DNA from: Candidatus Woesearchaeota archaeon CG_4_10_14_0_2_um_filter_33_13
GTDB lineage: Archaea > Nanobdellota > Nanobdellia > Woesearchaeales > GW2011-AR9
NCBI GenBank assembly: GCA_002792115.1
Contig: PFNQ01000048.1
Span: forward strand, 1-35,500
DNA length: 35,500 nt
Reading direction: 5' to 3'
A program made the position numbers and the translations under genes. The notes under the pieces were generated by a model. The model saw only the letters and a list, made by a program, of their open reading frames with translations. It was not told the origin of the DNA and did not search any database. The number at the start of each line of letters is the position of its first letter. The first letter of the stretch is position 1. Positions 27,909-30,286 of this stretch are shown piece by piece.

Positions 27909-28148
27909 ATGGTAAATACTGACTTGAAAGAGCAATTTTTAAGAGATCCAATTGGAACTCTTGTAGCGTACTTAACCTTTAGTTATGCTAAAGGAAGAAC
28001 AGGAACAACACCATCTATTCCGGTTACGGACCTTGGACCAAAGCAACAATTTGATCCTAGAGAACATTATCAGATTGGTAAAAGTCAAGTTGATGGTGTA
28101 AACCCAACTTCAGATAGAAGAAGAGGGCGGTTTGGTGATTACAAGTAA
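27909..28148 (+). CDS. hypothetical protein
   Basis: 79-aa ORF, start just after GGGGGGTT. Confidence 0.55.
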   Translation: MVNTDLKEQFLRDPIGTLVAYLTFSYAKGRTGTTPSIPVTDLGPKQQFDPREHYQIGKSQVDGVNPTSDRRRGRFGDYK

Positions 28149-28875: not shown

Positions 28876-29742
28876 ATGGTCAGCGACAAGAAACTAAAAT
28901 TAGTACAGGAACTTGTTAAAGACGTTAAAAGCTATCCTATTGTTGGTGTTATCAACATGTGTAACTTACCTGCTCAACAGTTGCAAGATATGCGAGCAAC
29001 TTTAGGTAAGAAAGGTGTCAAGATTGTTATGGCTAGAAAAAGGTTATTGCAATTAGCTTTACAACAATCTGGTGTTGAAAATATTGAAGAGTTACGTAGC
29101 AAAATTAAAGGTATGCCTGCATTATTGTTCAGTAAAGACAATCCTTTTACTTTATACTCAATCATTCAGAAGAACAAGTCTAGTGCACCTGCTAAAGCTG
29201 GTCAAGTATCACCAAAAGATATTGTTGTTAAAGCCGGACCAACTAACTTTGCTCCAGGACCAATCATTTCAGAGTTGGCTTCTGTAGGAATTAAGACTAA
29301 AGTTGAGAATGGTAAATTAGCAATTATTAATGACGTTACTGTTGCTAAAGAAGGAGCAGTTATAACTCCTAAATTAGCTGAATCATTAAAACGTTTAGAT
29401 ATCCAACCAATGGAAGTTGGTTTAGACTTAATTGCAGTGTGGGAAAATGGTTTAGTCTTTAATGCTAAGCAGTTACATGTTGATGAGCAAGAATACACTA
29501 ACAACTTTGTTTCAGCAGCTCAAGCAGCTATCAATTTAGCAGTTGAGATTACATTCCTAACTGCAGAAACAACAGATATGATCTTGCAAAAAGCAGCTAG
29601 AGAAGCAAGAGCCGTAGCACTTGAACAAAATTTTATGACTGAAGATACTAGGGATGAAATTTTGGCAAAGGCTGAAGCTCAGGCTACTTCAGTTAAGAAT
29701 GAAGGTAAGATAGAAGCACAATCTGAGCCAAAAAAAAACTAA
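28876..29742 (+). CDS. rpl10: large-subunit ribosomal protein L10 / P0 (uL10), zero-frame product of 288 aa
   Basis: MRATLGKKGVKIVMARKRLL, FAPGPIISELASVGIKTKVENGKLAI, AAINLAVEITFLTAETTDMILQKAAREARAVA. Confidence 0.93.
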   Translation: MVSDKKLKLVQELVKDVKSYPIVGVINMCNLPAQQLQDMRATLGKKGVKIVMARKRLLQLALQQSGVENIEELRSKIKGMPALLFSKDNPFTLYSIIQKNKSSAPAKAGQVSPKDIVVKAGPTNFAPGPIISELASVGIKTKVENGKLAIINDVTVAKEGAVITPKLAESLKRLDIQPMEVGLDLIAVWENGLVFNAKQLHVDEQEYTNNFVSAAQAAINLAVEITFLTAETTDMILQKAAREARAVALEQNFMTEDTRDEILAKAEAQATSVKNEGKIEAQSEPKKN

Positions 29743-29951
29743 AACTGGAGAAACAGCCGGAAAAGCAACCGGAGAAAACACAACCAAATGCGGTAGAAAT
29801 TGCTAAAGAAATTGAAAAAATTCCTTTAGAAAAACCGGAAATAATTGTGGATAAGAAACCGCATCCTAATCATGGGGATGTTTCAATTAATCAAGCTCAA
29901 GAGTTGTGGGAGAAACTTCAAAAGGAAGGGACTCTGCGTGAGAAAAAATAG
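29733..29951 (+). other. -1-frame C-terminal extension of L10 (70 codons) downstream of slippery A AAA AAC
   Basis: -1 frame from 29739: LKLEKQPEKQPEKTQPNAVEIAKEIEKIPLEKPEIIVDKKPHPNHGDVSINQAQELWEKLQKEGTLREKK*, stop at 29949..29951. Confidence 0.75.
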
Positions 29952-29983
29952 TTACAAAGTAAATTCATAAGGAGGAGTCAAAA

Positions 29984-30286
29984 ATGGAATACGTTTATGC
30001 CACAATGCTTTTACACAAAGCTGGAAAAGAGATTACTGAGGATGCAGTTAAAGCTGTGCTTAAATCTGCTGGAGTTAATGTTGACGAAGCAAGAGTTAAA
30101 GCTTTAGTAGCAGCTCTACAAGGAGTTGATATTGAAGAAGCTATCAAAAAAGCTGCTGTAGCTGCACCTGTAGCTGCACCTGTAGCAAGTGAAGCAAAAG
30201 CTGAAAAGAAAGACGATAAACCAAAAGAAGATGACAAGAAAGCTGAAGAATCTGCTGCAGCTGGACTTGGCGCACTTTTTGGATAA
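29984..30286 (+). CDS. rpl12: acidic ribosomal protein P1 (archaeal L12)
   Basis: [31 protein letters not shown], Ala/Pro hinge, C-terminal GLGALFG. Confidence 0.96.
30158..30187 (+). repeat. 12-bp tandem repeat (GTAGCTGCACCT x2.5) in L12 hinge
   Basis: gtagctgcacct gtagctgcacct gtagca. Confidence 0.9.

What the first reader, a model, noticed from the sequence alone, without database searches (positions are those of the whole stretch)
29728..29951. Possible frameshift-decoded L10 (P0): A AAA AAC TAA followed by a 70-codon open -1 frame
The zero frame reads CCA AAA AAA AAC TAA within a nine-A run. The last seven bases before the stop (29733-29739) form the canonical -1 slippery heptamer A_AAA_AAC, with a stop as the next codon. 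Slipping -1, or gaining one A, opens 70 codons in the same charged style (LKLEKQPEKQPEK...NQAQELWEKLQKEGTLREKK) ending 32 nt before the L12 start. The fused product would be about 358 aa, close to typical full-length archaeal L10, against 288 aa for the zero frame. The L12-binding helices precede the slip, so a mix of forms would alter only the flexible stalk tail. Explanations: programmed -1 frameshift, transcriptional slippage on A9, fixed truncation, or homopolymer error. Only weak downstream structure was found (CTGG-N8-CCGG), which tempers the programmed hypothesis.
Basis: partly seen in the sequence, partly recalled or inferred. Interest (0 to 1): 0.75.

Follow-up and report, generated by a model that had tools for sequence, protein, structure and literature searches.

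The report
Slippery-run recoding of archaeal ribosomal L10
In this Woesearchaeota genome the gene for ribosomal stalk protein uL10 stops at a run of nine A's while a conserved C-terminal tail continues in the -1 frame; two related species break the gene in exactly the same way and still keep the tail under selection, so slippage at the A-run probably makes two forms of a core ribosomal protein.

Summary
In detail: CCA AAA AAA AAC TAA, then 70 open -1 codons ending 32 nt before L12. The -1 tail is real coding sequence. It ends in a conserved module (EA..L..LKKxGTLR) that relatives carry in one frame at the end of uL10, or instead at the end of uL22, never on both. Against G016 it is as constrained as the L10 body (pN/pS 0.14/0.66 versus 0.18/0.66). 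It is the only copy found in this genome.

Immediate relatives have unbroken genes, which alone suggested a recent indel or an assembly error. But of about 135 uL10 3' ends examined across the order, exactly two others are broken, both in another family, and both read AAA AAA AAC TAG with the module in -1. Between those two species the -1 tail is under purifying selection (pN/pS 0.14, same as the body). Their break site is a 32/33-nt conserved island in an otherwise scrambled linker, with a 5-bp hairpin just 5' of A10.

I favour recoding by slippage at the A-run (about 0.58), transcriptional slightly ahead of ribosomal. Recent indel (0.2) and consensus error (0.2) remain open for this genome. 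Reads, RNA or peptides would decide.

The parts
28876..29742 (+). uL10 (P0) zero-frame gene, 288 aa plus TAA; body with PF00466 and RL10P_insert
   Evidence: PF00466 2.3e-21, PF17777 8.4e-19
29730..29738 (+). A9 run; a single extra A in the transcript, or a -1 slip, opens the tail frame
29733..29739 (+). slippery heptamer A_AAA_AAC in zero-frame phase
   Evidence: same heptamer plus stop in G268 and G270
29740..29742 (+). zero-frame stop TAA directly after the heptamer
29739..29951 (+). -1 frame tail, 70 codons plus TAG; would give a 358-aa fusion
   Evidence: pS 0.66, pN 0.14 against G016 over 28 codons
29862..29939 (+). conserved C-terminal module HPNHGDVSINQAQELWEKLQKEGTLR
   Evidence: profile hits E 1.0e-18 and 6.3e-16; only copy found in this genome
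29745..29772 (+). two small downstream hairpins (3 bp and 4 bp), starting 5 nt after the heptamer
   Evidence: -8.3 kcal/mol, z -3.0; not seen in the other two species
29971..29975 (+). GGAGG, Shine-Dalgarno-like site of L12
29984..30286 (+). L12 stalk protein gene, normal GLGALFG tail

Best explanation
The uL10 gene is recoded at the A-run. Most molecules end at the TAA and give a 288-aa stalk protein without a tail. A fraction gain one A in the mRNA (RNA polymerase slippage) or slip -1 on A_AAA_AAC (ribosome), and give a 358-aa protein carrying the conserved GTLR module on a charged flexible linker. The module is a short helix-plus-turn that other genomes of this order tether to the ribosome through uL10 or uL22, presumably to recruit a partner. 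Recoding would therefore set what share of ribosomes carries it. Shown: module homology, constraint on the -1 frame, recurrence of the site. Inferred: expression, ratio, module function, and which machine slips (I put transcriptional slippage somewhat ahead, about 0.35 against 0.23).
For: (1) The -1 tail matches in-frame tails of relatives and is as constrained as the L10 body. (2) G268 and G270, two species of another family, have uL10 ending GAC CAA AAA AAA AAC TAG with 255 and about 206 -1 codons that contain the same module. (3) Between them the -1 tail has pN/pS 0.14 over 140 codons, equal to the body's 0.137; read in the zero and +1 frames the same DNA gives 0.61 and 1.65. (4) The break site is a 32/33-nt identical island in a linker otherwise full of indels. 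It contains a 5-bp hairpin UCCUC-loop-GAGGA 2 nt upstream of A10; the only difference lies in the loop. (5) All three out-of-frame tails among about 135 uL10 3' ends have the same direction, heptamer, phase and immediate stop. (6) The module sits on uL10 or uL22 but never both (12 and 19 of 44 genomes with both genes; P for no overlap 2.5e-4, kinship ignored), and this genome's uL22 lacks it. (7) A9 slippage in Thermus dnaX gives about half full-length product, endosymbiont poly(A) runs give 12-50% corrected transcripts, and a 5'-adjacent nascent stem-loop stimulates slippage in a Roseiflexus IS (PMC5009743). Archaeal -1 shifting at A_AAA_AAT is shown for Sulfolobus fucA1 (PMC8211752).
Against: No reads, RNA or peptides were available. 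The nearest relatives with the tail (G016, G014) have no A-run and no break. The 5' hairpin of G268/G270 is absent here, and the downstream hairpin here is absent there. Thirteen family genomes with both genes lack the module altogether, so it is dispensable over evolution. The same genome has a second A10-run frame break, in a PEP-utilizing-enzyme paralogue, so homopolymer breaks do occur in it.
Confidence: 0.58

Rival explanations
1. A recent real one-base indel in the A-run has cut the module off in this population; the tail is now (nearly) untranslated and only looks conserved because the event is young. The truncated uL10 works like the short form of many relatives.
For: Many relatives have 279-280-aa uL10 without a tail and 13 lack the module on both proteins. 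G021 shows another interruption between body and module, an in-frame TAA in its uL22 linker. A second A10 break exists in this genome. The tail differs from the consensus of other genomes at 3 of 16 conserved columns, not an outlier.
Against: Does not account for the same heptamer-plus-stop arrangement in G268 and G270, where the tail stayed under selection over their divergence. All 70 codons and the module are intact here.
Confidence: 0.2
2. Consensus or assembly error: the genome really has one more A and a single 358-aa frame.
For: Homopolymers are the usual place for indel errors; the genome is a 57-contig draft, 92% complete.
Against: Of 46 other A/T runs of 9 or more that overlap ORFs of at least 120 aa in this genome, only one clearly breaks a gene. 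In 246 kb sampled from G268/G270 no other run of 10 exists and the A9 runs well inside ORFs keep the frame. An error would have to recur at the same spot in three assemblies and each time yield AAC-stop.
Confidence: 0.2
3. The tail is made on its own by internal or coupled initiation, e.g. at GTG in the -1 frame, not as a fusion.
For: A GTG occurs in the -1 frame upstream of the module (sequence).
Against: No Shine-Dalgarno-like site before it; a free tail would not be tethered, while every in-frame relative makes a fusion to uL10 or uL22.
Confidence: 0.02

Closest known systems
Sulfolobus solfataricus fucA1 -1 programmed frameshifting (PMC8211752)
   Same: Archaeon; -1 shift on A_AAA_AAY; relatives have the gene in one frame with a different A-run length
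   Different: There an enzyme gene needs the shift for any function; here the zero frame is a complete ribosomal protein and the shift adds a tail module; no experiment yet here
Thermus thermophilus dnaX transcriptional slippage at nine A/T (PMC5009743)
   Same: A9 run, stop shortly after in one frame, short and long products from one gene
   Different: Bacterial polymerase and a DNA polymerase subunit gene; here a ribosomal protein in an archaeon, and slippage not yet demonstrated
Roseiflexus IS stem-loop-dependent transcriptional slippage (PMC5009743)
   Same: Hairpin directly 5' of the slippery run, as in G268/G270
   Different: U5C5 motif with deletion; hairpin not present in the window's genome
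Canonical archaeal uL10/P0 with GLGALFG tail
   Same: uL10 body, RL10P_insert, L12-binding helices, operon with L1 and L12
   Different: Factor-binding GLGALFG tail missing; a GTLR module takes the C-terminus in some lineages

Membership tests
-1 programmed ribosomal frameshift | X_XXY_YYZ heptamer in zero-frame phase | tested here: met
   A AAA AAC at 29733-29739; same in G268, G270
-1 programmed ribosomal frameshift | -1 ORF conserved as protein | tested here: met
-1 programmed ribosomal frameshift | site conserved among related genes | tested here: inconclusive
   conserved between G268 and G270; absent in other family members with in-frame tails
-1 programmed ribosomal frameshift | stimulatory structure 5-9 nt downstream or SD upstream | tested here: inconclusive
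   small hairpins here z -3.0, none downstream in G268/G270; GAGG 7 nt upstream of the heptamer in those two
-1 programmed ribosomal frameshift | trans-frame protein made at a set ratio | not testable with these tools
   needs proteomics or a reporter
programmed transcriptional slippage | homopolymer run long enough to slip (A9 or more) | tested here: met
   A9 here, A10 in G268/G270
programmed transcriptional slippage | 5'-adjacent nascent stem-loop (an optional stimulator) | tested here: inconclusive
   present and conserved in G268/G270, absent in the window
programmed transcriptional slippage | mRNA length heterogeneity at the run | not testable with these tools
   needs RNA reads
uL10 (P0) family | Ribosomal_L10 and RL10P_insert domains, L1-L10-L12 order | tested here: met
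uL10 (P0) family | canonical archaeal GLGALFG C-terminus | tested here: not met
   neither frame ends so; an optional feature in this order
SHOCT / SHOCT-like domain | profile score above the curated cut-off | tested here: not met
   17.2 bits against cut-off 27

The most novel reading that the evidence does not exclude
A core archaeal ribosomal protein is routinely made in two forms by slippage at a selected A-run, so that only a set fraction of ribosomes carries a mobile recruitment module which in sister lineages has jumped to uL22. Site, hairpin and -1 tail are kept by selection in at least two species and arose or persisted separately in this genome.
Probability: 0.38. Interest if true: 0.88.

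Novelty: new variant of a known kind. Interest (0 to 1): 0.72.

Why it matters
Proven non-viral -1 recoding in archaea rests essentially on one Sulfolobus enzyme gene (PMC8211752). A recoded ribosomal stalk protein would be a first of its kind as far as the searches here show. It would give a testable case of built-in ribosome heterogeneity, and it points to an undescribed ribosome-tethered motif that swaps between uL10 and uL22 in a large uncultured archaeal order.

Tried and rejected
Looked for close relatives in viral contigs: none. Looked for the module elsewhere in this genome: none. PDB profile matches of the tail are repeats of designed PPR proteins that match only EEALELFEEMKEKG: rejected as helix-composition matches. 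Pfam matches to SHOCT-like and others are all below cut-off. The order-wide pattern A8CTAR was too long a list to intersect with uL10 positions, so uL10 3' ends were fetched and read instead; other long out-of-frame stretches flagged there are short, lack the module or run through L12. G269, the third genome of the G268 genus, lacks uL10 in its assembly. The sigma-70/terminator scan was uninformative.

Full report
OBSERVATION. The window is one whole contig of a 1.33-Mb draft archaeal genome. Its relatives in public records are titled Woesearchaeota or Nanoarchaeota MAGs. uL10 runs 28876-29742 and ends GAG CCA AAA AAA AAC TAA; A9 is 29730-29738 and A_AAA_AAC is 29733-29739. The -1 frame stays open for 70 codons to TAG 29951, and L12 starts at 29984.

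THE TAIL IS REAL. In the family, 48 of 51 genomes gave a uL10 hit. Most are 279-280 aa, but twelve continue in one frame for 320-563 aa and end in a conserved block, e.g. G016 HPKQGDVSTDQAQELLEKLQKEGTLRKDD against the window's -1 frame HPNHGDVSINQAQELWEKLQKEGTLREKK. Over 28 codons the window and G016 differ with pS 0.66 and pN 0.14; the L10 body gives 0.66 and 0.18. The tail was therefore translated for nearly all of its history, and possibly still is.

THE MODULE MOVES. A six-frame profile search showed the same C-terminal block at the end of uL22 in many genomes whose uL10 is short. In 44 genomes with both genes found, 12 have it on uL10, 19 on uL22, 13 on neither and none on both (P for no overlap 2.5e-4, kinship ignored). 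Parsimony needs about ten changes of place on a poorly resolved tree. An even sample of 380 genomes of the phylum shows the module only within this order. In this genome the sole copy is the out-of-frame one; its uL22 lacks it. I infer a ribosome-tethered binding motif; its partner is unknown.

IS THE BREAK MEANINGFUL? Three observations pull towards accident: in-frame relatives lack the A-run and stop; the module is lost altogether in some genomes; and one other A10 run in this genome breaks a PEP-utilizing-enzyme paralogue. Against rampant sequencing error, nearly all other A/T runs of nine or more that overlap ORFs keep the frame.

THE DECISIVE COMPARISON. Two of the order-wide module hits sat in open frames separate from their uL10. 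G268 and G270, two species of another family, have uL10 ending GAC CAA AAA AAA AAC TAG, and the module lies in the -1 frame 255 and about 206 codons long (the G270 tail contains two N's near the module, so its end is uncertain). The -1 tail between them has pN/pS 0.14 over 140 codons, the uL10 body 0.137. The same DNA read in the zero or +1 frame does not look coding (0.61, 1.65). The break site is an island of 32/33 identical bases, while the linker on both sides is scrambled by indels. The island folds into a five-pair hairpin ending 2 nt before A10, and the single difference is in its loop. Reading 90 further uL10 loci (including these two) across the order found no other such case. So of about 135 uL10 3' ends, three are out of frame and all three share direction, heptamer, phase and immediate stop.

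MECHANISM. Two machines could slip. Bacterial RNA polymerases slip on A9 or longer and mostly add bases (PMC5574713; PMC5009743). One added A gives exactly the tail frame, and a 5'-adjacent hairpin is a known enhancer in a Roseiflexus IS (PMC5009743). Ribosomes slip -1 on A_AAA_AAT in Sulfolobus (PMC8211752), and the heptamer phase here is right in both lineages. Downstream structure is unusual only in the window (z -3.0) and absent in G268/G270, so no downstream element is conserved. I lean slightly to transcriptional slippage. No data on archaeal polymerase slippage were found, so this lean is weak.

VERDICT. Recoding about 0.58 for this genome (higher for G268/G270); recent indel 0.2; consensus error 0.2. 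The finding deserves follow-up with reads, RNA and peptides.

Noticed in passing
G021: L192 (reverse strand), uL22 and downstream: uL22 has an in-frame TAA in the linker, and the module (..VENLYEQLQKKGSLR) follows in the same frame: another interruption between ribosomal protein body and module, by stop codon rather than frame.
   Followed up: partly
G000:C20:23679-23688 (L086, reverse strand): A second A10-run frame break in this genome, in a PEP-utilizing-enzyme paralogue; homologues elsewhere read through the region in one frame.
   Followed up: partly
uL22 loci L176, L179, L180, L182, L187, L195-L198, L201-L206, L211; uL10 loci L004, L011, L013, L015, L021: The GTLR C-terminal module occurs on uL10 or uL22, never both; upstream repeats PSAxELLxxAQxKAAELN accompany it in uL22 and in some uL10 tails.
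   Followed up: partly
window 27909-28148: 79-aa ORF upstream of L1 (MVNTDLKEQFLRDPIGTLVAYLTFSYAKGRTGTTPSIPVTDLG...) with no identity assigned.
   Followed up: no
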